DNA of 64,000 bases from the NCBI RefSeq assembly GCF_030758955.1, contig NZ_CP132360.1:2546316-2610315 (forward strand). Reading direction: 5' to 3'. The notes under the pieces are model-generated. The model did no database searches. It was not told where the DNA came from and saw only the letters and a program-made list of their open reading frames with translations. Both the position numbers and the translations under genes were made by a program. The first letter of the stretch is position 1. Every line of letters starts with the position of its first letter. Shown piece after piece: positions 4,937 to 45,036 of this stretch. The stretch comes from Agrococcus beijingensis (lineage in GTDB: Bacteria; Actinomycetota; Actinomycetes; Actinomycetales; Microbacteriaceae).

Positions 4937-6021
4937 CGCTCGAGTTCACGCTGACGCGATCCGCGCAGCCCGTCGCCGGCGACACCCGCCAGGGCGTGCT
5001 CGCCGAGCCCGGCTTCGGCCGCCACTTCACCGACCACATGGTCTCGATCGACTGGACGGTCGACGGCGGCTGGCACGACGCCCGCGTCGAGCCGTACGGC
5101 CCGCTGCAGATGGACCCTGCGTCGGCCGTGCTGCACTACGGCCAGGAGATCTTCGAGGGCATGAAGGCCTACCGCCGCGCCAACGGCTCGGTCTGGACCT
5201 TCCGCCCCGAGGAGAACGCGAAGCGCATGCAGCGCTCGGCCGCCCGCCTGGCGCTGCCGCAGCTGCCGGTCGACGACTTCGTCGAGGCCGTGCGGCAGCT
5301 GGTCGAGGTCGACGAGGCCTGGGTGCCCGAGGGCGGCGAGAACTCGCTGTACCTGCGCCCCTTCATGATCGCGAACGAGGTCTTCCTCGGCGTGCGCGCT
5401 GCGCAGACCGTGCGCTTCATGGTGATCGCCAGCCCGGCCGGCCCCTACTTCGCGGGCGGCGTGAAGCCCGTCTCGATCTGGCTCTCGACCGAGTACAACC
5501 GGGCGGGCAAGGGTGGCACCGGCGCCGCGAAGTGCGGCGGCAACTACGCCGCGAGCCTGCTGCCCACGCAGCAGGCGGCTGAGAACGGCTGCGCGCAGGT
5601 GCTGTTCCTCGACGAGTCGGGCAGCGACCTCGAAGAGCTCGGCGGCATGAACGTCGTGCTCGTCAAGGCCGACGGCACGCTCGTCACCCCCGAGTCCGAG
5701 TCGATCCTCGACGGCGTCACGCGCAACTCCCTGCTCCAGTTGGCGGCGGATGCCGGCCACACGGTCGAGCGACGCCCGGTCACCCTGTCGGAGTGGCGCG
5801 ACGGCGTCGCCGACGGCTCGATCACCGAGGCCTTCGCCTGCGGCACCGCCGCCGTGCTGACCCCGATCGCCGCGCTGAAGAGCCCGGACGAGGTGATCGG
5901 CGATCCCGACGCGCCCGCCGGCCCGGTCGCGACCAGCCTGCGCAAGCAGCTGACCGACATCCAGTACGGCCGTGCCGACGACCGCCACGGCTGGATGCAC
6001 CGGCTGACGGGTGCCCGCTGA
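4933..6021 (+). CDS. ilvE: Branched-chain amino acid aminotransferase
   Basis: The 362-residue class IV PLP enzyme transfers the amino group between glutamate and the keto acids of Leu, Ile and Val. The PLP lysine lies in [15 protein letters not shown], and the fold-type IV glycine-rich segment [13 protein letters not shown] is present. It is coupled to leuB (ATGA overlap) and to the next gene (TGATG at 6019-6023). Length is normal for actinobacterial IlvE. Confidence 0.96.
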
Positions 6022-6794
6022 TGCGCGTCGCGCGCTTCGCCCACGGCGAGCGGATCGGCTACGGCGTCGTCGACGAGGACGCCCTGGTCGAGCTCGTCGG
6101 CGACCCGATCGTCGCTGGCTTCGACACCACCGGCACCCGCATCCCGCTCAGCGAGGTGCGCCTGCTGGCACCGGTCATCCCGCGCTCCAAGGTGGTCGCC
6201 GTCGGCCGCAACTACGCGAAGCACGCGGCCGAGCTGGGCAACGAGGTGCCGACCGAGCCGCTGGTGTTCCTGAAGCCCAACACCTCGGTCGTCGGCCCCG
6301 GCGACGCGATCGTGCTGCCGCCGGAGTCGCAGGACGTGCACTTCGAGGGCGAGATCGCGCTCGTGATCGGCCGGGTCGCTCGCCGGCTCACGAAGGCAAA
6401 CGCGCTCCACGCCGTCTTCGGCGTGACCGTCGCGAACGACGTCACCGCCCGCGACCTGCAGCAGCGCGAGCCGCAGTGGGCGCGCGCGAAGGGCTTCGAC
6501 ACCTTCTGCCCGCTCGGCCCGGCGATCGAGACCGAGCCCGACTACAGCGCGCTCCGGCTCATCACCCGCGTCGACGGCGAGGTGCGGCAGGACGGGGTCT
6601 CGAGCGACTGGATCTTCGACGCACCGACCGTGCTCGAGTGGATCACCGCATCCATGACCCTGCTGCCCGGCGACGTCGTGCTGATGGGCACGCCCGAGGG
6701 CGTGGGCCCGATCGTGGCCGGCCAGACCGTCGAGGTCGAGGTGCCGGGCGTCGGCACGCTGCGCAACCCGGTGATCGCGCAGACCGTCGTCTGA
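6021..6794 (+). CDS. Fumarylacetoacetate hydrolase family protein
   Basis: The 257-residue protein is the FAH catalytic fold. The metal ligands sit in HFEGEIALVIG (two Glu) and NDVTARDLQ (Asp), with the family GRNYAKHAAE loop and LMGTPEGVGP near the end. Relatives include acylpyruvate hydrolases, oxaloacetate decarboxylases and hydroxyheptadienedioate isomerases; the substrate cannot be assigned here. Its start overlaps the ilvE stop by one base, and the leuB-ilvE-FAH run is followed by gltX 1.9 kb on, an arrangement known in Microbacteriaceae. Confidence 0.9.
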   Translation: MRVARFAHGERIGYGVVDEDALVELVGDPIVAGFDTTGTRIPLSEVRLLAPVIPRSKVVAVGRNYAKHAAELGNEVPTEPLVFLKPNTSVVGPGDAIVLPPESQDVHFEGEIALVIGRVARRLTKANALHAVFGVTVANDVTARDLQQREPQWARAKGFDTFCPLGPAIETEPDYSALRLITRVDGEVRQDGVSSDWIFDAPTVLEWITASMTLLPGDVVLMGTPEGVGPIVAGQTVEVEVPGVGTLRNPVIAQTVV

Positions 6795-6878
6795 GATCGA
6801 CCTCCGCCCTCGGAGGTCGCGCCCCTAGGCTCTGCACCAGCGGCGGCGCCGGTCGCCGAGAGACTCGAGGAGGAGTCC

Positions 6879-7586
6879 ATGTCGGAGATCCAGCAGCTGC
6901 TGTCGCAGCTTCCCGTGCAGCAGATCGCCCAGCAGGCGGGGGTGGGGGAGGACGAGGCGCGGCAGGCGCTCGAGGCGATCGTGCCGACGCTCGTCGGCGG
7001 CATGCAGGCGAACGCGCACGACCCGGCAGGGGCGCAGTCGCTGATGGGAGCGCTCGGCGCGCACGCAGGGCACTTCGACGAGCGCGTCGCGGGCGACGTC
7101 GACACCGCCGACGGCGAGAAGATCGTGCACAACATCTTCGGCGACAACACCGACCAGATCGCTCGGGCCGCGGGTGGCGGCGGCGCGCTCGGCGACATCA
7201 TCAAGAAGATCCTGCCCATCGTCGCGCCCATGGTGATCGCCTGGATCGCCAATCGGCTCTTCAACCGGGGCGGCGGCCAGGCGGCCCCGACCGAGCAGGG
7301 GCAGGCGCCCACGCCCACGCAGGGCGGCGACTCGCCCTTCGGACAGGGCTCGGCAGGCGCAGAGCAGAAGATCCAGGTCCCGCAAGGGCAGTCGCCCACG
7401 CAGGGCCAGGGCCAGGCCCAGCAGCAGAGCGACGGCTTCGGCCTCGACGACCTGCTCGGCGGCATCCTCGGCGGCGGCTCGGGGCAGAGCGGCCAGGGCG
7501 GCGGCCAGAGCGGCGGCCAGGGCAGCGGCCCGCTCGGCCCGCTGGGCGACCTGCTCGGCGGCCTCCTCGGCGGCGGCCGCCGCTGA
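6879..7586 (+). CDS. DUF937 domain protein with Gly/Gln-rich tail
   Basis: The 235-residue protein has an N-terminal DUF937 region (about residues 1-130, VGEDEARQALEAIVPTLVGGM, GEKIVHNIFGDN), one hydrophobic segment KKILPIVAPMVIAWIANRLF, then a low-complexity Gln/Gly/Pro region and a C-terminal LGDLLGGLLGGG tail. An AGGAGG ribosome site precedes the ATG. DUF937 includes E. coli YidB; its role is unknown. It stands alone, between FAH and the PadR gene. Confidence 0.75.
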   Translation: MSEIQQLLSQLPVQQIAQQAGVGEDEARQALEAIVPTLVGGMQANAHDPAGAQSLMGALGAHAGHFDERVAGDVDTADGEKIVHNIFGDNTDQIARAAGGGGALGDIIKKILPIVAPMVIAWIANRLFNRGGGQAAPTEQGQAPTPTQGGDSPFGQGSAGAEQKIQVPQGQSPTQGQGQAQQQSDGFGLDDLLGGILGGGSGQSGQGGGQSGGQGSGPLGPLGDLLGGLLGGGRR

Positions 7587-7621
7587 CGCACGGGCGTCAG
7601 GGAGCCACGCCTTCCTGCAGT

Positions 7622-7641
7622 CTGTCTGCATATGCAGACAG
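7622..7641. promoter_or_regulatory. Perfect 20-bp palindrome, PadR operator
   Basis: CTGTCTGCATATGCAGACAG is a perfect palindrome with an AT-containing centre, 20 bases before the PadR ATG. A TAGAGT box follows at 7650-7655. PadR proteins bind such symmetric sites and repress their own promoters, so this is the likely autoregulatory operator (inference). Confidence 0.75.
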
Positions 7642-7649
7642 GCTCACGC

Positions 7650-7655
7650 TAGAGT
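7650..7655 (+). promoter_or_regulatory. -10 box of padR-like gene, leaderless
   Basis: TAGAGT ends 6 bases before the ATG at 7662, so transcription should start at or next to the start codon. There is no room for a ribosome binding site. Confidence 0.5.
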
Positions 7656-7661
7656 GTGCGC

Positions 7662-7988
7662 ATGGCTTCCCCTGACGCGCTCCGCGGCCACGTCGACGCG
7701 ATGCTGCTGTCGGTGCTCTCCGACGGTCCCGTGCACGGCTACGGTGCGATCGAGCGCATCCGCGCCCGCTCCGGTGGCGAGCTCGACTTCCCGAGCGGCA
7801 CCGTCTACCCGGCGCTCAAGCGCCTCGAGCGGCGCGGCCTGATCGAGGGGGAGTGGGAGGCCGCGGGGCGCTCGAAGCGCGTCTACCGGCTGACGCCGGC
7901 TGGCGAGCGCTCGCTCGCCGAGCAGCGCAGCGAATGGGCGCTCACGGCGTCGCTGATCACGCGCGTGCTCGGCGCGGCGCGAGCCTGA
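7662..7988 (+). CDS. PadR-family transcriptional regulator
   Basis: This 108-residue winged-helix protein shows the PadR hallmarks: LLSVLSDGPVHGYGAIERI for the first helices and FPSGTVYPALKRLERRGLI for the recognition helix and wing. It likely represses itself through the 20-bp palindrome at 7622. PadR genes are commonly paired with HAAS-domain membrane proteins; here the partner is convergent and overlaps the PadR 3' end by 32 bases. The signal is unknown. Confidence 0.9.
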   Translation: MASPDALRGHVDAMLLSVLSDGPVHGYGAIERIRARSGGELDFPSGTVYPALKRLERRGLIEGEWEAAGRSKRVYRLTPAGERSLAEQRSEWALTASLITRVLGAARA

Positions 7989-8661
7989 CGGCTCCCCACC
8001 GCACGAGCAGCATCGCCGCGGCCGCGGCCATCGCGCCGCCGACCAGCACGGTCAGGGTCACGAGCGCGATGAGCGTGGCCTGACCGTCAGCGGGCACGGC
8101 CACCATGCCGACCAGCGCGACGGCGCCGAGCACCAGTGCCGACGCGAACGCCAGCTGCAGCGCGGCGACGGCGACCAGCGCGGCCAGCGAGCCGGTGCGC
8201 CTGATCGCGAGCCAGCCCGCGACCGCGGCACCCGCACCGATCCATCCCGTGACGTCGAGCGCCCGCGAGACCGGCAGCATCCACGCCGCCGCGATCGGCA
8301 CGCTGAACCCCGGCACCGCAGCCAGCGTCGTCATGCCGACGAACCACGCCAGCAGCAGGCCCACGGCGGCGATCGCCGCGACCGGCGCGAACCTGCGGCC
8401 GCGCTCGGCGAGCAGCTCCACCGACAGCTCGGTCGCCACCTGACGCGCATCGCCGAACTCTGCGACGACGGCGGATGCGGCGGTCGCCTCGGGCGCGCCG
8501 GCCCCGACCCGCGCGGCGACGGCCTCGCGCAGGTCGCCCTCGATCTCGCGCAGCAGCTCGCTGCGCTCGCGGCGCGAGGCCACGACGCCGCGCTCGAGGC
8601 GGCCGAGCAGCTCGGCGAGCGGTTCGGCGGCGGGGCGTGCCCGGGGGCGGAGGGACGGCAT
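7957..8661 (-). CDS. HAAS-domain membrane protein
   Basis: The 234-residue protein begins with a charged helical region resembling the HAAS/permease-prefix domain ([36 protein letters not shown], residues about 10-85), followed by about five hydrophobic helices. Such proteins usually partner a PadR regulator, and the PadR gene here overlaps it tail to tail by 32 bases. The start is the ATG at 8661 (MPSLRP); ATG at 8697 would add a short non-conserved leader. Its upstream region is shared with divergent gltX. Confidence 0.72.
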
Positions 8662-8682
8662 CGTCGGCGATTCTCCCACGCC

Positions 8683-8688
8683 TAGACT
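8683..8688 (+). promoter_or_regulatory. -10 box of gltX
   Basis: TAGACT lies 10 bases before the gltX ATG at 8699, leaving at most a few bases of leader and no Shine-Dalgarno sequence. Confidence 0.5.
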
Positions 8689-8698
8689 GGGATCCATC

Positions 8699-10189
8699 AT
8701 GAGCGTCCCCTTCTCGACGGCGACGGGCAGCGATGTCGTCGTCCGCTTCTGCCCATCGCCCACCGGCACCCCGCACGTCGGCCTGATCCGCACCGCGCTG
8801 TTCAACTGGGCCTACGCGCGCCACCACGGCGGGAAGCTGGTCTTCCGCATCGAGGACACCGACGCGGCGCGCGACAGCCAGGAGTCGTACGAGCAGCTGC
8901 TCGACGCGATGCGCTGGCTCGGCATCGACTGGGACGAGGGCGTCGAGACCGGCGGCCCGCACGAGCCCTATCGGCAGTCGCAGCGCGGCGAGATCTACGC
9001 CGAGCTCGTCGAGCGCCTCAAGGCGGCGGGCCACCTCTACGAGTCGTTCGCGACCGCCGAGGAGATCGAGGCGCGCAACCTGGCGAACGGCCGCGACCCG
9101 CGGCAGGGCTACGACAACTTCGAGCGCGAGCTCACCGACGCCGAGCGGGCAGCACTGCGCGCCGAGGGCCGCCAGCCCAGCCTGCGGCTGCGCGTGCCCG
9201 ACGAGGACCTCTCGTTCGACGACCTGGTGCGCGGCGAGATCACCTTCCCCGCCGGCTCGTTCAGCGACTTCGTGGTCGTGCGCCCCAACGGCGCCCCGCT
9301 CTACACGTTCGTGAACCCCGTCGACGACGCCCTGATGGGCGTCACCCACGTGCTGCGCGGCGAGGACCTGCTGTCGTCGACGCCCCGCCAGATCGCGCTC
9401 TACCGCGCGCTCGCCGACATCGGCGTCGCCACCGCGATCCCGCGCTTCGGCCACATGCCCTACGTGATGGGCGACGGCAACAAGAAGCTCTCGAAGCGCG
9501 ACCCGCAGTCGAACCTGTTCCTGCTGCGCGAGGCCGGCTTCATCCCCGAGGGGCTGCTGAACTACCTGGCGCTGCTCGGCTGGTCGATCGCGCCCGACCG
9601 CGACGTCTTCAGCCGCGACGAGCTGATCGCGGCGTTCGACGTCGAGGACGTCAACCCGAACCCGTCGCGCTTCGACCCGAAGAAGGCCGAGTCGATCAAC
9701 GGCGACCACGTGCGCATGCTGGCGCCCGACGACTTCGCGAAGCGCCTCGAGCCGTACCTCGGGCAGGTCTTCGGCGGTGCGCCCAGCGACGCGGAGCGCG
9801 CCCTGCTGCAGCAGGCGGCGCCGCTCGTGCAGGAGCGCATGCAGCTCATCGGCCAGGCCGAGGACATGCTGGGCTTCCTCTTCCTCGACGCCGAAGACAT
9901 CCATCACGACCCCGACGCGGTCGCGAGCCTGGGCGACGACGCGCACGCGGTGCTCGAGGCCTCGCGCCGCGCGCTCGCCGAGCTCGAGACGTTCGATACC
10001 GCATCCATCGAGGCTGTGCTGCGGGAGGTGCTCATCGACGGGCTCGGCATCAAGCCGCGCTTCGCGTTCACGCCGCTGCGCGTGGCCGTCACCGGCCGCC
10101 GCGTCTCGCCGCCGCTGTTCGAGTCGATCGAGCTGCTCGGCCGCGAGTCGGCGCTCGCCCGCATCGACCGGCTGGCCGCGAGCGTCTGA
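8699..10189 (+). CDS. gltX: Glutamyl-tRNA synthetase
   Basis: The 496-residue class I synthetase charges tRNA-Glu. The HIGH-type motif appears as SPTGTPHVG (about residues 20-28) and the KMSKS-type loop as KKLSKRD. RIEDTD and the C-terminal anticodon-binding helical region are also present. Length is standard for bacterial GluRS. Its TGA overlaps the next ATG by one base (10187-10191), coupling a TrxR-like flavoprotein to it. Confidence 0.97.
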
Positions 10190-11106
10190 TGGCGACCGAC
10201 GTCGACGTCGTCGTGATCGGCGCGGGGCCGGCGGGGCTTGCGGCGGCGCTCAACCTCGCTCGGCAGCAGCGCACGGTGCGGCTGCTCGACTCCAACCGCC
10301 CGCGGCACGCGGCGACGCTGCAGTCGCACGGCTTCCTGACGCGCGACGGCATCTCGCCGCTCGAGCTGCGCACGCTCGGCCGCGAGGAGGTGCTGCGCTA
10401 CCCGACGGTCGAGCACGAGCGCACGATGGTGCGCCAGGTGGTCGCGGTCGAGGGCGGCTTCGCGGTGCAGGCCGAGCAGCCCGGCTCGCGCGCCGAGAGC
10501 GAGACGCGCGCCGCGGCGGTGCTGATCGCGACGGGCCTCAGCGAGACGCTGCCGCTGTCGCAGCACGTGCGGCCCTGGTACGGCACGAGCCTGCACTCCT
10601 GCATGGACTGCGACGGCTACGACAAGCGGGGCCAGGCGCTCGCCCTGATCGGCGAGACGCCCGACCTGGTCGACCGCGCGATGGTGATCCGCCGGCACAC
10701 GGCCGACCTCGCGGTGTTCACGAACGGGTCGGATGCGGTGGGCGAGGCCGGTGAGGCACGGCTCGTCGAGCACGGGGTCACCCTCGTGCGCACGCCGATC
10801 GCGGCCATCGAGGGCGATCGCGACGGCATGCAGGCGATCGTGCTCGAGGACGGCAGCCGCAGCGTGCGCACGGGCGGCTTCGTGCGGCCGTGGTGGCACC
10901 CGCAGCTCGAGTTCGCCGAGTCGCTGGGCCTCGAGACCGACGAGGAGGGCCTCGTCGTGGTCGACCGGGCGCAGCGCGCCTCTGCCGAGGGCGTCTACGC
11001 CGCCGGCGACATCACGCCCGGCTTCCGGCAGCTGGCGGTCGCCGCGGGCGCCGGCACGATCGCGGCTTCGGTCATCAACCGCGACCTCATCGCGCGCGGC
11101 CGCTGA
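10189..11106 (+). CDS. Thioredoxin-reductase-like FAD/NAD(P) oxidoreductase
   Basis: The 305-residue flavoprotein has the FAD dinucleotide fold VIGAGPAGLAAALNLARQ at the N-terminus, a redox-type pair CMDC (in HSCMDCDGY, near residue 143) at the position of the TrxR CATC centre, and the C-terminal FAD signature GVYAAGDITP. The typical NADPH-domain GxGxxG is degenerate (LIGETPDLVDRAM), so the electron donor and partner are uncertain. It is translationally coupled to gltX, and no thioredoxin lies beside it. Confidence 0.85.
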   Translation: MATDVDVVVIGAGPAGLAAALNLARQQRTVRLLDSNRPRHAATLQSHGFLTRDGISPLELRTLGREEVLRYPTVEHERTMVRQVVAVEGGFAVQAEQPGSRAESETRAAAVLIATGLSETLPLSQHVRPWYGTSLHSCMDCDGYDKRGQALALIGETPDLVDRAMVIRRHTADLAVFTNGSDAVGEAGEARLVEHGVTLVRTPIAAIEGDRDGMQAIVLEDGSRSVRTGGFVRPWWHPQLEFAESLGLETDEEGLVVVDRAQRASAEGVYAAGDITPGFRQLAVAAGAGTIAASVINRDLIARGR

Positions 11107-11231
11107 CCGAGCGCGCGGGCGCAGTCGGAGGGCGCAGGACGCACGGCCCGCAGCCCAGCCCGCGCCTATCCCGCCCGTCGCCCGGGGAGTAGCCTGATCT
11201 GCACGCGGGACGCCGCGGAGGAGGCACTGCG

Positions 11232-39095: not shown

Positions 39096-39169
39096 GGTGG
39101 GTATAGCTCAGCTGGTAGAGCGCCGCCTTGTGGTGGCGGATGTCGCGGGTTCAAGTCCCGTTACTCACC
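39096..39169 (+). tRNA. tRNA-His (anticodon GTG)
   Basis: The cloverleaf has acceptor GTGGGTA/TACTCAC (one G-T pair), anticodon stem CCGCC/GGCGG around loop TTGTGGT (anticodon GTG) and T arm GCGGGTTCAAGTCCCGT. G at 39096 serves as the extra G-1 opposite discriminator C at 39169, the tRNA-His identity element. CCA is not fully encoded. Confidence 0.95.
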
Positions 39170-39180
39170 CACAGACGGGT

Positions 39181-39231
39181 CAGGTGTGAACTTTCGACCA
39201 AGGGACCACCCTTGGAGGAAGTTCGCACCTG
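39181..39231. terminator. Nested hairpin after tRNA-His
   Basis: An outer 13-bp stem (39181-39193 with 39219-39231, one G-T pair) encloses an inner perfect 7-bp stem CCAAGGG/CCCTTGG (39198-39204 / 39209-39215). A pyrimidine-rich GCCCTATTTCTTT follows, consistent with termination of tRNA-His. The size and nested form are unusual and could also be a recombination or MITE-like structure at the island edge. Confidence 0.55.
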
Positions 39232-39331
39232 GCCCTATTTCTTTGCCTCGGCGGCCCACCAGGGAAAAGCATGGCGAGGGCCACACTTGCTCGGCGTGCT
39301 TACCGAGGCACGGAGACGCCCGCCGGAATCT

Positions 39332-39616
39332 CTAAGCGAGCGAGAGGAAGAGCTTCTCCAGCTCGTCGATGCGCTCGCCGTCGCCCGGCTCCTCGGCTAG
39401 GCACTCCTTCAGGGCACCGGCGACCACCAGGAAGCCAGCCCGGTCGACGGCCTTCGACACTGCGGAGAGCTGCTGCACGACGTCGCGGCAGTGGGCCTCG
39501 TCCTCGACCGCAGCGATGACGGCTGCCAGCTGGCCGTGCGCGCGCCGCAGCCGATTCACGATCTTGCGCTTCGCCTCCGGGTCGTGCGCCGCGACGATGT
39601 CTGGGCTGATGCTCAT
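39332..39616 (-). CDS. CstR-like persulfide-sensing repressor (CsoR/RcnR family)
   Basis: The 94-residue all-helical protein is of the DUF156 family (KRKIVNRLRRAHGQLAAVI). It keeps two Cys (Cys43 and Cys72), but the residue four before Cys72, where copper-sensing CsoR has His, is Ala. Two Cys without the His is the pattern of CstR, which senses persulfides by cross-linking the Cys pair. The divergent persulfide-dioxygenase operon supports this. A strong AGGAGGAAT site precedes the ATG. Two operators lie between it and 39715. Confidence 0.85.
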   Translation of the reverse strand: MSISPDIVAAHDPEAKRKIVNRLRRAHGQLAAVIAAVEDEAHCRDVVQQLSAVSKAVDRAGFLVVAGALKECLAEEPGDGERIDELEKLFLSLA

Positions 39617-39631
39617 CGGATTCCTCCTGGG

Positions 39632-39662
39632 TTGACATCCACCATACTCCCCAGGGTATAGT
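39632..39662 (+). promoter_or_regulatory. Promoter of sulfur-detoxification operon
   Basis: TTGACA (39632-39637) and TATAGT (39657-39662) are 19 bases apart, and the first operator fills the spacer and overlaps the -10. Repressor binding would block RNA polymerase. Confidence 0.6.
39644..39659. promoter_or_regulatory. CstR-type operator 1
   Basis: ATACTCCCCAGGGTAT is a GC-centred inverted repeat of the ATACCCC-GGGGTAT kind bound by CsoR/CstR repressors. It overlaps the -10 box of the plus-strand operon. Confidence 0.7.
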
Positions 39663-39666
39663 TTGG

Positions 39667-39682
39667 ATACCCCCCGGGGTAT
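39667..39682. promoter_or_regulatory. CstR-type operator 2
   Basis: ATACCCC-CC-GGGGTAT is a perfect 7+7 repeat, 23 bases after operator 1 start to start (about two helical turns), so two repressor tetramers could bind the same face. Confidence 0.75.
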
Positions 39683-39714
39683 TCAACCTTCATCGACACC
39701 GCCAGGAGGGCGAG

Positions 39715-39900
39715 ATGTGCAGAGCCGCGAAGTGCAACATCTGCGGGAAGACGACCTGGGCTGGCTGCGGCCAGCACGTGAACGACGTGCGCCGCACGGT
39801 CCCGGCATCCGACTGGTGCCCCGGCCGGCACACGCAGCGCGACATCGATGAGGCGAAGGCCTCGCGACCCGGCTTCCTCGCGCGCCTGTTCGGCCGCTGA
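39715..39900 (+). CDS. Small Cys-rich protein A (CxxC...WAGCGQHV)
   Basis: A 61-residue protein, MCRAAKCNICGKTTWAGCGQ at its start, with five Cys and two His in 40 residues: CxxC, then GCGQHV, then WCPGRH, and a helical basic tail. It resembles a zinc-ribbon or metal/persulfide-binding knuckle. GGAGGGCGAG precedes the ATG. It is the first gene of the operon and a paralogue of the next one (shared CxxCGKxxWAGCGQHV). Function is unknown. Confidence 0.8.
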   Translation: MCRAAKCNICGKTTWAGCGQHVNDVRRTVPASDWCPGRHTQRDIDEAKASRPGFLARLFGR

Positions 39901-39923
39901 TCCACTGACGAGAGGACATCACC

Positions 39924-40037
39924 ATGTGCGCACGCATCACCTGCGACCGCTGCGGCAAGCCGAGCTGGGCTGGATGCGGCCAGCACGTCGAGGAGGCCCT
40001 CGGGGGCGTCCCGGCGGCCGACCGCTGCCACTGCTGA
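39924..40037 (+). CDS. Small Cys-rich protein B, 37 aa
   Basis: A 37-codon gene, MCARITCDRCGKPSWAGCGQ at its start, followed by HVEEALGGVPAADRCHC. It carries six Cys and two His, and shares CxxCGKxxWAGCGQHV with the preceding protein, so the two are tandem duplicates; this one lacks the C-terminal tail. GAGAGGAC precedes the ATG, and it lies 23 bases after gene A and 38 before the next. It is easily missed because of its size. Confidence 0.8.
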   Translation: MCARITCDRCGKPSWAGCGQHVEEALGGVPAADRCHC

Positions 40038-40075
40038 CGACTACAACGACGACGACGACGAACAAGGAGAGCATC

Positions 40076-41488
40076 ATGCTGCTGGAGCGCATCTACGACG
40101 AGGACCTCGCACAGGCGAGTTACGTCATCGGTTGCCAGGCGACCGGCGAGGCGATCGTGATCGACCCCCGCCGCGACGTCGACGAGTACATGCGACTGGC
40201 CGACAAGCACGGCCTGCGCATCGCGCACGTCACCGAGACCCATATCCACGCCGACTACCTCTCAGGCACCCGCGAGTTCGCGGCGCGCACCGGTGCCCGC
40301 ATGCACGTCTCCGACGAGGGCGGACCCGACTGGACCTACGGCACCGGCTTCGACGACGCCGACCGGATGCACGACGGCGACGAGATCGTCGTCGGCAACG
40401 TGACGCTGCGAGCGGTGCACACCCCCGGCCACACGCCCGAACACCTGTCGTTCCTCGTGACCGACGGCGCGCAGGCCCAGGAGCCGGGCTTCATGCTCAC
40501 CGGCGACTTCGTGTTCGTCGGCGACGTCGGCCGACCGGACCTGCTCGACGAGGCGGCCGGCGGCGTCGACACCCGCTTCGAGGGCGCTCACCAACTCTTC
40601 GCGAGCCTGCGCGACCGCTTCCTGACACTGCCCGACTACGTCCAGGTGCTGCCAGCGCACGGTGCCGGCAGCGCGTGCGGCAAGTCGCTCGGCGCGATCG
40701 CGGCGACGACCGTCGGCTACGAGCGCGCCTTCTCGTGGTGGGCTCCCTACCTCGCCGCCGACGACGAGCAAGGCTTCGTCGACGAGCTACTCTCCGGCCA
40801 GCCCGACGCCCACGCGTACTTCGCCCGAATGAAGTCCCAGAACCGCACCGGCCCCGCGGTGCTCCACCCCCGCGCACCGCTCCCCGAGCGGTCCACTGCG
40901 GAGGTGCAGCACCTCCTGGAGCGCGACCTCGCGATCCTGGTGGACACTCGGGACCGCCGGCAGGTGCACGACGGCACCGTGGTCGGTTCCCTCAACATCC
41001 CGGGCGCAGCGAAGGCCGCGACCTACGGGGCGTGGGTCTACGATCCGGAGGCGGAGCACCGGCCGCTCGTTCTCCTCGCGGACGACCGCGAGGAGGCGGA
41101 GCGGATGCGCGACCACCTCGTGCGGGTCGGCATCGACGCCGTCGACGGTTTCATCCGCTCCCTCGACGGGCTCGAGCTGGTGCAGCCCCGACTGCTGCAG
41201 CCGGAGGAGCTCGACGGCCTCGCCGACGTGAACCTGGTCGACGTGCGCGGCAGCTCCGAGCACGCCGACGGGCACATCCCCGGCTCCGCGCACCTCAGCG
41301 GCGGCCGCGCGCTGTGGCACCTCGACGAGTTGCCCGCGGACGGCACCGTCGTGACGTACTGCCAGAGCGGCGTGCGCAACAGCGTCGTCGCCAGCGCACT
41401 GCGCCGGGCCGGCGTCGACGTCGTCGAGCTCGACGGCTCCTACCTCGGGTGGCTCCAGACAACCGGGCGCGAGCCGGCGACCAGCTGA
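40076..41488 (+). CDS. Persulfide dioxygenase-rhodanese fusion (CstB-like)
   Basis: The 470-residue protein has an N-terminal metallo-beta-lactamase domain with iron ligands in ETHIHADYLSG (His56, His58, Asp60), TPGHTPEH (His119), LTGDFVFVGD and LPAHGAGSACG. Two rhodanese domains follow. The first (about 290-365) lacks the catalytic Cys (VLLADDREE); the second (about 375-465) has it in YCQSGVRNS (Cys429). This is the CstB layout: oxidation of persulfide to sulfite and transfer to thiosulfate. GGAGAGC precedes the ATG. Confidence 0.92.
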   Translation: MLLERIYDEDLAQASYVIGCQATGEAIVIDPRRDVDEYMRLADKHGLRIAHVTETHIHADYLSGTREFAARTGARMHVSDEGGPDWTYGTGFDDADRMHDGDEIVVGNVTLRAVHTPGHTPEHLSFLVTDGAQAQEPGFMLTGDFVFVGDVGRPDLLDEAAGGVDTRFEGAHQLFASLRDRFLTLPDYVQVLPAHGAGSACGKSLGAIAATTVGYERAFSWWAPYLAADDEQGFVDELLSGQPDAHAYFARMKSQNRTGPAVLHPRAPLPERSTAEVQHLLERDLAILVDTRDRRQVHDGTVVGSLNIPGAAKAATYGAWVYDPEAEHRPLVLLADDREEAERMRDHLVRVGIDAVDGFIRSLDGLELVQPRLLQPEELDGLADVNLVDVRGSSEHADGHIPGSAHLSGGRALWHLDELPADGTVVTYCQSGVRNSVVASALRRAGVDVVELDGSYLGWLQTTGREPATS

Positions 41489-41510
41489 CCGCCGAGGATC
41501 GAGGCGCCCG

Positions 41511-42284
41511 ATGACGCCGACCGCCACCATCGCCGTTCTTGCGCTCGCCCTGCTGGTCGGCATCAGCCTCGGCCTGCTGGGCGGCGGCGGCTCGATCCTC
41601 GCCGTGCCCATCCTGACCGCCGTCGGCGGCGTGGAGCCGCGAGCCGCCATCGCGTCGTCACTGCTCATCGTCGGCACGACGAGCGCCCTCGGACTGCTGC
41701 AGCACGCTCGCGCGGGCCGCGTGCGCTGGCGTGTCGGGGTAGTCTTCGGAGCGGCCGGTGTCGTCGGCGCGCTCGTCGGCGGGCTGCTCGGCCGCACGCT
41801 GCCCCCAGGCGTGCTCATGGTGCTGCTCGCCGGCACGATGATCGCCGCCGCGGTGGCGATGCTTCGCCGGCGCCCGCGTCACGACCGGGCGGAGCCCGCT
41901 CGGCCGCGCATCGCCCTCGTCCTCGTGCTCGGAACGGTTGTCGGCTCACTCGCCGGGCTGGTCGGCGCGGGGGGCGGCTTCCTCATCGTCCCCGCGCTGA
42001 TCCTGCTCGCCGGCCTGCCCGCGTCGGCCGCGATCGGCACATCCTTGCTCGTCATCGCGATGCAATCGCTCGCCGGGCTCGCGGCCCAACCAGCACTCCC
42101 CGACATCCCCTGGGCGCTGGTGCTGCCGTTCACCGCAATCGCCGTGGCGGGCTCCTTCCTCGGCTCGGCGCTCACCGGCCGCATCCCCGAACGGGCACTG
42201 CGCACCGGATTCGCGGTGCTCGTGCTCAGCGTGGCCGTCGCGCTGCTCGTGCAGCAGCTCGCGCTCCACCTCCCGCTCACCTGA
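41511..42284 (+). CDS. TauE/SafE-family sulfite/organosulfonate exporter
   Basis: The 257-residue membrane protein has about eight helices in two similar halves, with the repeated family motif GLLGGGGSILAVPIL in the first half and GLVGAGGGFLIVPALI in the second. TauE/SafE proteins move sulfite, sulfonates or sulfoacetate. In this operon it probably exports sulfite or thiosulfate made by the persulfide dioxygenase (inference from context). Confidence 0.92.
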   Translation: MTPTATIAVLALALLVGISLGLLGGGGSILAVPILTAVGGVEPRAAIASSLLIVGTTSALGLLQHARAGRVRWRVGVVFGAAGVVGALVGGLLGRTLPPGVLMVLLAGTMIAAAVAMLRRRPRHDRAEPARPRIALVLVLGTVVGSLAGLVGAGGGFLIVPALILLAGLPASAAIGTSLLVIAMQSLAGLAAQPALPDIPWALVLPFTAIAVAGSFLGSALTGRIPERALRTGFAVLVLSVAVALLVQQLALHLPLT

Positions 42285-42309
42285 ACGACACCGCTCACCG
42301 GAGAACACC

Positions 42310-42675
42310 ATGACCAGAACCCAGCTCGCCGGCCTCGCCGGCCTCGCGCTCGCCGCCGTCACGACAGGCTGCGCATCGACGCCCCCTGGCAGCGTCGCAG
42401 CTCCAGCGGACGCCGTCGTCATCGACGTGCGCACCGCGCCCGAGTTGGCATCCGGTCACCTCGACGGCGCGGTCCTCCTCGACGTGTCGAACGGCGACCT
42501 CGCCGCGGCACTGCCCTCGCTCGACCCTGATGCGCCCTACTTCGTCCACTGCAGGTCCGGCAGCCGGTCAGCACAGGCGGTCGCGCTCATGCGCGAGGCC
42601 GGCTTCGCGGACGTCACCGACCTCGGCGCGCTCAAGAGCGCGTCAGCGGCGACCGGCCTCGCAATCGGGCGCTGA
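42310..42675 (+). CDS. Rhodanese-domain lipoprotein
   Basis: The 121-residue protein has a signal peptide with lipobox AAVTTGC (Cys21) and one rhodanese domain. VIDVRTAPELASGHLDGA is the first signature, and the active-site loop HCRSGSRSA contains the catalytic Cys. It should be anchored outside the membrane and handle sulfane sulfur there, complementing the cytosolic fusion enzyme. It sits between the exporter and thioredoxin. Confidence 0.9.
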   Translation: MTRTQLAGLAGLALAAVTTGCASTPPGSVAAPADAVVIDVRTAPELASGHLDGAVLLDVSNGDLAAALPSLDPDAPYFVHCRSGSRSAQAVALMREAGFADVTDLGALKSASAATGLAIGR

Positions 42676-42720
42676 CGCCGGCCCATCCGACCATCACCGA
42701 TCCAGGGAGCAACCCCGAAC

Positions 42721-43098
42721 ATGACCACGCGTGACATCACCATCGAAACGATCGACTCGACCATCGCCGGCGACGGCATGGTGCTCCTCGACTTCTGGGC
42801 GGCATGGTGCGGCCCCTGCCGCAGCTTCGCGCCCGTCTTCGACCGAGCTGCCGCGTCGAACACCGACATCGTGTTCGGTAAGGTCGACACCGAGGACCAG
42901 CAGCAGCTGGCCGCGGCGTTCCGCATCACGTCCATCCCGACGCTCATGGCCTTCCGCGACGGGATCCTCGTCTTCTCGCAGCCCGGCGCGCTGGGCCAGG
43001 CCCAGCTCGACAGCCTCATCGCCGGCGTCCGCGCGCTCGACATGGACGACGTGCGCCGCCAGGTCGCCGAGCAGCGCGCAGCCGCCGAGGCGCCGTGA
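42721..43098 (+). CDS. Thioredoxin
   Basis: The 125-residue protein has the active site WCGPC (Cys30, Cys33), DFWAAWCGPC strand-helix start and the cis-Pro segment ITSIPTLMAF, plus a short helical C-terminal extension. In this operon it likely reduces persulfides or regenerates the sulfurtransferases and the CstR-type sensor. Its stop overlaps the next GTG (GTGA at 43095-43098). Confidence 0.93.
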   Translation: MTTRDITIETIDSTIAGDGMVLLDFWAAWCGPCRSFAPVFDRAAASNTDIVFGKVDTEDQQQLAAAFRITSIPTLMAFRDGILVFSQPGALGQAQLDSLIAGVRALDMDDVRRQVAEQRAAAEAP

Positions 43099-43376
43099 CT
43101 TCCCGCCGCCGCGCCCCGGTCTGCGCTCCGGGAAGCATCGAACGCGTCGTGCAGGCCGCTGTCGGCGCGCTGACCGGCGCGTTCGCGCTCAGCAACCTGC
43201 ACGACGCGCCGCTCGCCATCGCCGCCACGCTCGGCGCTGCGCTCCTCCTCACCGGCGCAGTCCGCGGCTGGTGCCCGGCATCGCTGCTCGCGCGAGTCAG
43301 TGCCACCGCCGCAGAGCACAACACGCTTGGCATCCCCGAAGCCCGCCAGCCGCTCGACCAGCGAGGCCCCCGCTAG
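43095..43376 (+). CDS. DUF2892-like small membrane protein
   Basis: The 93-residue protein has an amphipathic start and two short hydrophobic helices (about 21-38 and 41-57), then GWCPASLLARV. The pattern ...RxVQAAVGALTG...GxxLLLTGAVRGWCPA resembles the DUF2892 family, often fused to rhodanese (YgaP) or encoded beside sulfur-transfer genes. The conserved Cys in GWCP may take part in sulfur transfer. It is the last gene of the operon. Confidence 0.8.
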   Translation: MTSRRRAPVCAPGSIERVVQAAVGALTGAFALSNLHDAPLAIAATLGAALLLTGAVRGWCPASLLARVSATAAEHNTLGIPEARQPLDQRGPR

Positions 43377-43418
43377 AGCGCAGGCTTCAGCCGCCCCCTC
43401 GTGCTGCCTCGCCGATTG

Positions 43419-44521: not shown

Positions 44522-44550
44522 TTGTTCTCGAATACTCCTGGGGGTATAGT
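44522..44550 (+). promoter_or_regulatory. Promoter of DUF302-SHOCT-multicopper oxidase unit
   Basis: TTGTTC (44522-44527) and TATAGT (44545-44550) are 17 bases apart. The -10 and its position relative to the operator are the same as in the promoter at 39632. Confidence 0.6.
44532..44547. promoter_or_regulatory. CstR-type operator 3
   Basis: ATACTCCTGGGGGTAT matches operator 1 at 14 of 16 positions and overlaps the -10 TATAGT in the same way. It should place the downstream genes under the same repressor. Confidence 0.65.
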
Positions 44551-44634
44551 TGGATGCATCAGCGGGGACCGCGGATCGTGCCGGCACAAGCCTTCGGCCG
44601 ACTCCCGCCCGCCCCGAGTCGCTTGGAGCAAGCC

Positions 44635-45036
44635 ATGAGCTACGGCATGACCACGACAGTCGCCCTCCCCTTCGACGAAGCGGTCGCCGCGATCCGCGCG
44701 GCGCTCGCCACGCAGGGATTCGGCGTGCTGACCGAGATCGACATGGCAGCGACGCTCAAGGCGAAGCTCGACGTCGACATGCCCCCGCAGGTGATCCTGG
44801 GCGCGTGCAATCCTCCCCTTGCGCTCCGCGCGCTCCAGGCGGAGGAGTCCATCGGACTGCTGCTCCCCTGCAACGTCACGGTGCGCGACGCCGGCGACGG
44901 CACGTCGGTCGTCGAGGCGCTCGACCCGAAGGTCATGGTCGGCGTCACCGGGAACGACGCGCTGCGAGCGGTCGCACACGAAGCGGCGGACCGCCTGGGC
45001 GCGGCGCTTGCCGAAGTCGGCAGCGGCAACGAGTGA
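44635..45036 (+). CDS. DUF302 family protein
   Basis: The 133-residue protein is a DUF302 domain: SYGMTTTVALPFDEAVAAIR, GFGVLTEIDMAATLKAKL, ILGACNPPLALRAL and GLLLPCNVTV are its conserved segments. It forms a swapped dimer in solved relatives; function is unknown, though it is frequent next to metal- and sulfur-stress genes. TGGAGC precedes the ATG. An in-frame ATG 27 codons upstream would extend into the 5' leader and is not preferred. Confidence 0.88.
   Translation: MSYGMTTTVALPFDEAVAAIRAALATQGFGVLTEIDMAATLKAKLDVDMPPQVILGACNPPLALRALQAEESIGLLLPCNVTVRDAGDGTSVVEALDPKVMVGVTGNDALRAVAHEAADRLGAALAEVGSGNE

What the first reader, a model, noticed from the sequence alone, without database searches (positions are those of the whole stretch)
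39715..40037. Tandem tiny Cys-rich proteins heading a persulfide operon
Two proteins of 61 and 37 residues share CxxCGKxxWAGCGQHV and open the operon before the persulfide dioxygenase. Five or six Cys plus two His in under 40 residues suggests a metal knuckle or a persulfide carrier/scavenger. The second is short enough to be missed by most annotation. I know no described function for this pair.
Basis: partly seen in the sequence, partly recalled or inferred. Interest (0 to 1): 0.7.

Follow-up and report, generated by a model that had tools for sequence, protein, structure and literature searches.

The report
Paired zinc-cysteine miniproteins in sulfur-stress operon
Two tiny proteins at the head of a bacterial operon that clears toxic reactive sulfur belong to a widespread, apparently undescribed family with a nearly fixed set of seven cysteine/histidine residues, linked to the persulfide-sensing switch and also found on viral DNA, which makes an untested role in handling reactive sulfur directly testable.

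Summary
ORFs 39715-39900 (61 aa, A) and 39924-40037 (37 aa, B) share a CxxCGK..WAGCGQHV core and open a persulfide operon: divergent CstR-like repressor, PDO-rhodanese, TauE, rhodanese, thioredoxin, YgaP-like protein. Coding signals are good. Neither matches Pfam, NCBIfam, PHROGs or the PDB.

They found a family: 167 of 394 sampled class genomes have it. C2, C7, C10, C18, H21 and C35 hold in 131 of 133 distinct proteins; all 131 add a Cys or His just after C35. AlphaFold gives a confident beta-beta-alpha core that I read as treble-clef-like; no PDB fold matches.

Of 120 loci, 83 have persulfide-type genes within 5 kb (3 of 40 control regions) and 37 have the published ScCsoR operator upstream (4 of 2,240 control windows). 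In this genome that operator occurs at three places: two before A, one before a DUF302 gene. 26 of 120 loci have neither. Copies also sit on viral contigs.

Best reading: CstR-regulated zinc-cysteine miniproteins that buffer or relay sulfane sulfur. Regulon link strong, zinc likely, sulfur chemistry inferred.

The parts
39332..39616 (-). Divergent CsoR-family repressor of CstR type (94 aa; C43 and C72 kept, His of copper CsoR replaced by Ala)
   Evidence: Pfam PF02583 E=1.1e-22; PDB alignments to 7mq3 and to M. tuberculosis CsoR 2hh7 show both Cys aligned and Ala where CsoR has His (which residue is the copper ligand is recalled)
39644..39659 (+). Operator 1, ATACTCCCCAGGGTAT (1 mismatch to ATACCn6GGTAT)
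   Evidence: published ScCsoR site in PMC7533328 (passages)
39667..39682 (+). Operator 2, ATACCCCCCGGGGTAT (exact match)
39715..39900 (+). Miniprotein A, 61 aa, with C-terminal GFLARLFGR tail
39924..40037 (+). Miniprotein B, 37 aa, core only, ends in CHC
40076..41488 (+). Persulfide dioxygenase-rhodanese fusion (type III PDO-like)
   Evidence: PF00753 + 2 rhodanese stretches; nearly whole-length match to 3tp9 and 3r2u
41511..42284 (+). TauE/SafE sulfite exporter
   Evidence: PF01925 E=4e-49
42310..42675 (+). Rhodanese with a lipoprotein-like N-terminus
   Evidence: PF00581 E=1.7e-12; lipobox-like TGC read by eye
42721..43098 (+). Thioredoxin
   Evidence: PF00085 E=1.4e-21
43095..43376 (+). YgaP-like transmembrane protein
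   Evidence: PF11127 E=3.9e-9
44532..44547 (+). Operator 3, ATACTCCTGGGGGTAT, the only further ATACYn6GGTAT place in the genome
44635..45036 (+). DUF302 protein downstream of operator 3, possible regulon member (start codon chosen by eye)
   Evidence: PF03625 E=1.9e-23

Best explanation
The two ORFs are two members of one family of zinc-cysteine miniproteins that belong to the CstR-type persulfide-response regulon of Actinomycetota. Shown by sequence: both ORFs are conserved and under purifying selection; they sit behind two operator sites and a divergent CstR-like repressor; the family recurs with persulfide-type genes and operators. Inferred from sequence and model: Met1 is removed so that C2 is N-terminal; C7-x2-C10 and C18-x2-H21 hold a zinc in a treble-clef-like beta-beta-alpha core; C2, C35 and C37/H38/H39 form a second thiolate-rich site, perhaps with the N-terminal amine. 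Inferred function: when persulfides rise, the repressor lets go, the proteins are made, and their labile thiolates take up sulfane sulfur and pass it to rhodanese, thioredoxin, the CoA-disulfide-reductase-like enzyme or PDO, that is, they work as a buffer and relay. The A form, with its FLARLF tail, may dock to a membrane or a partner; the B form is the bare core.
For: Neighbours: 83 of 120 class-sample loci have CsoR, PDO, CoADR, TauE, rhodanese, Trx or YgaP-like genes within 5 kb, 3 of 40 control regions do (Fisher p=2e-12); 63 of 120 within 300 bp; CsoR-like repressor alone 57 of 120 against 0 of 40 (p=1e-9); 72 of 120 have CsoR, CoADR or TauE. Clustering of neighbours without preset queries found a CsoR-family repressor in 66 loci, PDO 32, TauE 31, CoADR-rhodanese 26 at a median 40 nt. 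Operator ATACCn6GGTAT with at most 1 mismatch lies in the 250 bp before 37 of 120 genes, against 54 of 5,138 windows of the same loci and 4 of 2,240 control windows; 11 of the 37 loci without such neighbours keep it. In the whole 2.89 Mb genome ATACYn6GGTAT occurs at 3 places, all in this region; reversed-pattern control 0. Nearby repressors are CstR-like: no His at the copper position in the 104 of 127 CsoR-like ORFs that my pattern could read. Ligands: six in 131 of 133 distinct proteins, and Cys or His after C35 in all 131; the last ligand is C37 in 46, G-H38 in 61, G-x-H39 in 11 of 120, as metal ligands swap. Models: pLDDT 84.6 and 91.0, strands 3-6 and 13-16, then a helix.
Against: No metal, persulfidation, expression or phenotype data. 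The PDB has no related fold, so treble clef is my reading of the order of elements; I had no coordinates to measure Cys distances. 26 of 120 loci have neither neighbour nor operator, 12 of them in small-genome family f33, so a wider role is possible. Seven of the 83 rest on rhodanese or PDO-type hits alone; at least three of these, 3 kb away on the other strand in f33 genomes, look like the tRNA hydroxylase TrhO (by eye, one seen). Cys/His swapping at the last ligand speaks for metal binding more than for a thiol carrier. The S. coelicolor circuit is described with four genes and no such protein (PMC7533328, passages). No fusion to a sulfur enzyme was seen among 21 ORFs with long in-frame extensions.
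Confidence: 0.45

Rival explanations
1. A purely structural zinc-finger adaptor or regulator: it binds a protein (PDO, CoADR-rhodanese, the repressor, or RNA polymerase) or nucleic acid and does no sulfur chemistry itself; persulfide may switch it off by ejecting zinc.
For: Last ligand interchanges Cys and His; compact predicted beta-beta-alpha core; no fusions seen; copies on viral contigs, where small zinc proteins are often adaptors (general knowledge).
Against: Few non-ligand positions are near-invariant (K12, T14, W15, G17, G19), and neighbours vary, so no single partner is pointed to.
Confidence: 0.3
2. A metallothionein-like zinc or copper buffer that protects against metal released or mis-bound under persulfide stress.
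For: Cys-rich, very small, metal-like ligand pattern; a multicopper oxidase gene lies downstream in the window.
Against: The repressors that could be read beside it are of CstR type, not copper CsoR; ligand spacing is nearly fixed and a folded core is predicted, unlike flexible metallothioneins (recalled); the commonest neighbours are sulfur genes.
Confidence: 0.12
3. Cysteine-responsive leader ORFs: translation of the Cys codons controls the operon, as for polycysteine short ORFs in mycobacteria (Canestrari et al. 2020; recalled, and seen here only as cited in passages of PMC9094748).
For: First ORFs of an operon, Cys-rich, short.
Against: Whole-protein conservation including His, Trp and Gly, dN/dS below 1, SD-like motifs, occurrence in mid-operon, at operon ends and away from sulfur genes, no run of adjacent Cys codons, no terminator-like site in 39600-40120.
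Confidence: 0.03
4. Chance ORFs that are not translated.
For: The 37-aa form often has no listed feature in plasmid records (incomplete tables).
Against: More than a thousand homologue clusters, purifying selection and SD-like motifs.
Confidence: 0.01

Closest known systems
ScCsoR-ScPDO sulfane sulfur circuit of Streptomyces coelicolor (PMC7533328; passages seen)
   Same: CsoR-like two-Cys repressor, type III PDO, TauE, rhodanese, ATACCn6GGTAT operators, two of them before the PDO gene
   Different: The circuit as described has four genes and no miniprotein; here two miniproteins come first, and Trx and a YgaP-like protein follow, with a DUF302 gene behind its own operator
CstR regulon of Staphylococcus aureus and pneumococcal CstR (recalled; PDB 7mq1-7mq3 matched by sequence)
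   Same: CsoR family with two Cys and no copper His; PDO-rhodanese (3r2u chain matches over nearly the whole length) and TauE
   Different: To my knowledge no miniprotein of this family there; Bacillota genomes were not searched
Treble-clef zinc fingers (general class, recalled)
   Same: Predicted knuckle C-x2-C-G, beta hairpin, then two ligands at the start of a helix
Polycysteine leader ORFs of mycobacteria (cited in PMC9094748)
   Same: Short Cys-rich ORF at the head of an operon
   Different: Those are held to act through Cys codons; this is a conserved, probably folded protein found in many positions
Yasminevirus protein A0A5K0U7B3 (BFVD)
   Same: Foldseek probability 1.00, 40% identity over 53 columns to the 61-mer model
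   Different: 114 aa, giant virus, uncharacterised; E-value 5.2e-3, rmsd 7.3, sequence not seen

Membership tests
CstR/ScCsoR-type persulfide regulon | Operator ATACCn6GGTAT in the promoter | tested here: met
   Exact site 39667 and 1-mismatch site 39644; ATACYn6GGTAT at 3 places in the genome; 37 of 120 homologous loci
CstR/ScCsoR-type persulfide regulon | Repressor with two Cys and no copper-binding His | tested here: met
   Window repressor C43/C72, Ala at the His position; 0 His among the 104 read of 127 CsoR-like ORFs in homologous loci (the two locus sets share some species)
CstR/ScCsoR-type persulfide regulon | Induction by sulfane sulfur | not testable with these tools
   Needs expression data
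Type III persulfide dioxygenase (downstream gene) | MBL-fold PDO domain fused to rhodanese | tested here: met
   PF00753 and PF00581, 3tp9 and 3r2u over nearly the whole length; activity not testable
Treble-clef zinc finger | Knuckle-hairpin-helix with four ligands | tested here: inconclusive
   Order of elements and ligand places fit; no PDB fold match; no coordinates seen
Treble-clef zinc finger | Bound zinc | not testable with these tools
   None
Metallothionein | Flexible Cys-rich chain without a fixed fold | tested here: inconclusive
   Confident folded models speak against it, but they are predictions
Metallothionein | Metal-responsive control | not testable with these tools
   Readable repressors are CstR-like, not copper CsoR; metal response itself unknown
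Cysteine-responsive attenuator ORF | Run of Cys codons in a leader whose only role is its translation | tested here: not met
   Spaced Cys, whole-protein purifying selection, many positions in operons
Any Pfam, NCBIfam or PHROGs family | Score above curated or E-value limit | tested here: not met
   61-mer: no Pfam or NCBIfam hit (E up to 1), no PHROGs hit; 37-mer: best Pfam 13.2 bits against a cut-off of 27, no NCBIfam, no PHROGs

The most novel reading that the evidence does not exclude
A new class of two-metal, N-terminal-cysteine miniproteins, about 37-61 residues with seven near-invariant Cys/His ligands, is a general persulfide-handling or persulfide-sensing factor of Actinomycetota: it is under CstR control, travels on mobile islands, and has been taken up by several phage groups and perhaps a giant virus to manage sulfur stress in infected cells.
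Probability: 0.3. Interest if true: 0.82.

Novelty: new variant of a known kind. Interest (0 to 1): 0.62.

Why it matters
Persulfide homeostasis in bacteria is described, as far as I know, in terms of enzymes, transporters and sensors. A conserved miniprotein under the same switch, in 167 of 394 sampled genomes of its class and nameless or 'hypothetical' in the hits listed, suggests a missing component, for example a sulfane-sulfur buffer or relay, or a zinc-based second sensor. It is small enough to synthesise, so zinc content, persulfidation and sulfur transfer can be measured directly. Its presence on viral contigs raises the question whether phages manage sulfur stress in their hosts.

Tried and rejected
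Searches that gave nothing: Pfam and NCBIfam for both ORFs (only sub-cutoff Pfam hits for the 37-mer), PHROGs (61-mer, 37-mer, one viral copy), PDB by sequence with the 61-mer (best E 0.65), the 37-mer (none) and the family profile (one hit at E 0.1, a cerato-platanin-like protein, judged chance), PDB by fold. A third protein search with the L249 viral protein found no candidate. A viral scan with the 37-mer profile A3 gave no relative. Literature, open-access library only: seven motif strings, 0 papers and 1 paper, a malaria paper of which I saw the listing only and which I take for a chance match; topic searches (20 of 65, 4 of 4, 15 of 42, 8 of 10, 10 of 74, 7 of 7 papers listed) showed no such protein in titles or abstract starts. 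Subscription papers are not held, so 'undescribed' is limited to that.

Considered and rejected: fusion partners as a clue (21 ORFs with 60 or more in-frame upstream residues; the only match to the query set is a 39-residue MMPL piece before a degraded copy in L164); promoter and terminator consensus scan (none); Rfam element in the operon (only the tRNA); a repeat of the tRNA-His end in the window (none). The hydrophobic moment of the tail is only slightly above shuffles (0.517 against a mean of 0.441, maximum 0.509), so membrane docking stays a guess.

Limits of the sample: the 120 loci come from 115 of the 167 positive genomes plus 5 second copies; the others were not printed, or were among about 15 printed ones that I skipped as lying near contig ends or on short contigs (not applied strictly), and the window's own genome was left out. 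The 80 named loci are the best matches only and so biased to close relatives; some species occur in both sets. The 40 control regions are arbitrary places in 40 of the genomes. In the neighbour search PDO hits of any length counted, so some are rhodanese domains only, in controls too. The clusters also included the miniprotein itself and shadow ORFs of the other frames, which I passed over. Of the 14 stretches of the wider viral pattern, L299 and L303 hold no family ORF and L301 only a chance frame.

Full report
OBSERVATION. They share CxxCGKxxWAGCGQHV and are 51% identical over the shared part. Upstream and divergent lies a CsoR-family repressor; downstream follow TauE, a rhodanese with a lipoprotein-like start, thioredoxin and a YgaP-like membrane protein. 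The window is part of a 2.89 Mb single-contig genome. In one search the closest named homologue of A is from Agrococcus baldri (90%); an identical copy is in Microbacterium sp. oral taxon 186, by transfer (below).

REAL GENES. 352 homologues of A at E<=1e-3 and 1,076 for a B profile exist; in the 120 listed of each, names are absent, 'hypothetical' or 'uncharacterized'. Among the window and four relatives, dN/dS is 0.15-0.51 in 10 of 10 pairs for A and 0.06-0.30 in 9 of 10 for B (the tenth has dS 0); 103 of 132 testable family ORFs have an SD-like motif, against 317 of 2,640 random stretches. Neither Pfam, NCBIfam, PHROGs nor the PDB by sequence gives a relative; seven motif strings in 5.39 million open-access papers gave one listing, taken for chance.

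FAMILY ANATOMY. In a sample of the class, 167 of 394 genomes, own included, have the family; with the B profile 37 of 296 genomes of the phylum, 26 of these 37 outside the class. I fetched 120 loci from 115 of the class genomes. They hold 133 family ORFs, 13 loci having two; with the window's two they make 133 distinct proteins. C2-x4-C7-x2-C10-x7-C18-x2-H21-x13-C35 is present in 131 of 133; the exceptions are a degraded copy and one with C10 changed. All 131 have a Cys within 2 or a His within 5 residues after C35 (81 His only, 47 Cys only, 3 both). For the best copy of each locus the last ligand reads C37 in 46, G-H38 in 61, G-x-H39 in 11, one other, one unread. Such Cys/His exchange is typical of metal ligands (general knowledge). 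Met1 and Cys2 are each kept in 99%; methionine aminopeptidase would be expected to leave an N-terminal Cys (general knowledge). A tail like FFARLF is present in 65 of 99 members above 48 aa; the window's short B form ends at C37.

GENE CONTEXT. In the 80 best named loci (biased to close relatives) PDO is in 47 by my count of the printed rows, a CsoR-like ORF in 58, and two or more family members in 24. In the class sample, clustering of neighbours without preset queries put a CsoR-family repressor first (66 loci), then PDO 32, TauE 31, DUF302 27, CoA-disulfide-reductase-like with rhodanese 26 (median distance 40 nt), MMPL 23, rhodanese 21, Trx 17, leaving aside the miniprotein itself and shadow ORFs (identities and by similarity). 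By direct search 83 of 120 loci have at least one of CsoR, PDO, CoADR, TauE, rhodanese, Trx, YgaP within 5 kb and 63 within 300 bp; 3 of 40 control regions in the same genomes do (p=2e-12). CsoR-like repressors alone: 57 of 120 against 0 of 40 (p=1e-9). 72 of 120 have CsoR, CoADR or TauE; 7 of the 83 rest on rhodanese or PDO-type hits only, some of which look unrelated to persulfide, such as a TrhO-like gene in f33 genomes. No His at the copper position was found in the 104 readable of 127 CsoR-like ORFs.

OPERATOR. Lu et al. (PMC7533328, passages) report that ScCsoR binds ATACCn6GGTAT, lets go with sulfane sulfur, and represses PDO, TauE and rhodanese genes. The window has an exact site at 39667 and a 1-mismatch site at 39644 in front of A. 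Upstream of 37 of 120 family genes there is a site with at most one mismatch, mostly 30-90 nt before the ATG, against 54 of 5,138 windows in the same loci and 4 of 2,240 in control regions. Eleven of the 37 loci without such neighbours still carry the operator, so some lone copies look like regulon members too. In the whole genome ATACYn6GGTAT occurs at three places: the two here and 44532, before a DUF302 gene.

AGAINST. 26 of 120 loci have neither neighbour nor operator. Twelve of them are in family f33 (genomes of 1.2-2.2 Mb; by size perhaps Nanopelagicales, my inference); three others have a DUF302 gene 31-34 nt upstream. In three f33 loci the gene follows, 9 nt behind, a membrane protein that is PF03601 in the one tested, a family often annotated as sulfate exporter (recalled). 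So the function may be wider than this operon. The S. coelicolor circuit is described without such a protein.

VIRUSES. Relatives are on IMG/VR contigs: L242, L243, L244, L245, L249 and a partial L254, and L300, L302, L304 (a 278 kb contig), L305, L306. Neighbours match phage families: endonuclease V and 2OG oxygenase in L243, the latter in L245, HNH in L249; GroEL and HNH in L304, thioredoxin in L306. For L242 and L244 the proteins tried gave no named match, so their phage nature rests on IMG/VR. L241 (67% identical to A, at a contig end) is perhaps host flank, and L307 from the phage collection (GC 0.70, unverified record) may be bacterial DNA. The 9 aligned copies from viral collections keep M1, C2, C7, C10, G17, C18, G19, H21, C35. 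A Yasminevirus protein matches the A model with Foldseek probability 1.00, 40% identity, E=5.2e-3; its sequence was not seen.

MOBILITY. From just after tRNA-His (39097-39170) to about 43377 the window is 99-100% identical to Microbacterium sp. oral taxon 186 (L004), apart from an insertion in L004, while the upstream exonuclease gene is about 62-83% identical by 100-base bins: a recent transfer of the whole cassette to the same tRNA site.

VERDICT. The finding is real and better than stated: a widespread, apparently undescribed family in the CstR-type regulon. I put regulon membership at about 0.9, zinc binding at about 0.75, and buffering or relay of sulfane sulfur at about 0.45. Kind: new variant of a known kind, a new component of a known type of operon.

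Noticed in passing
window 39171-43377; L004 from about 5457 to 11143: The sulfur cassette is 99-100% identical between this genome and Microbacterium sp. oral taxon 186, starting right after tRNA-His in both, while the upstream gene is about 62-83% identical: a recent horizontal transfer to a tRNA site.
   Followed up: partly
L004 8264-9738: The other copy has a 1,475-base insertion inside tauE with a 424-aa ORF that looks like an IS110-type transposase (read by eye).
   Followed up: no
window 44532-45036: Third and last operator site in the genome lies before a DUF302 gene; DUF302 also recurs beside the family (24 of 120 loci, 0 of 40 controls), so DUF302 may be a persulfide-response protein.
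   Followed up: partly
L117, L118, L121, L142 and others: An MMPL-family transporter lies within 5 kb of the miniprotein gene in 22 of 120 loci, within 300 bp in 12, and in 2 of 40 controls; role unknown.
   Followed up: no
L161 6900-10748: A lone miniprotein with an upstream operator precedes succinate dehydrogenase/fumarate reductase genes, hinting that persulfide control may reach respiration.
   Followed up: no
L242, L243, L244, L245, L249, L254, L300, L302, L304, L305, L306: Miniproteins of this family on viral contigs of several kinds, including a 278 kb contig that encodes GroEL and an IF-1-like protein.
   Followed up: partly
BFVD A0A5K0U7B3: A Yasminevirus (giant virus) protein of 114 aa resembles the 61-mer model at 40% identity with Foldseek probability 1.00, E 5.2e-3; suggests relatives beyond bacteria.
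   Followed up: no
L061, L062, L064, L065, L067, L075: The same 58-aa form (five identical, one with two changes) occurs in several genera and on a plasmid, beside CsoR and YgaP-like genes: a second mobile version.
   Followed up: no
L200, L211, L212: In small-genome Actinomycetota the gene follows a membrane protein (PF03601 in L200) at 9 nt, without operator.
   Followed up: partly
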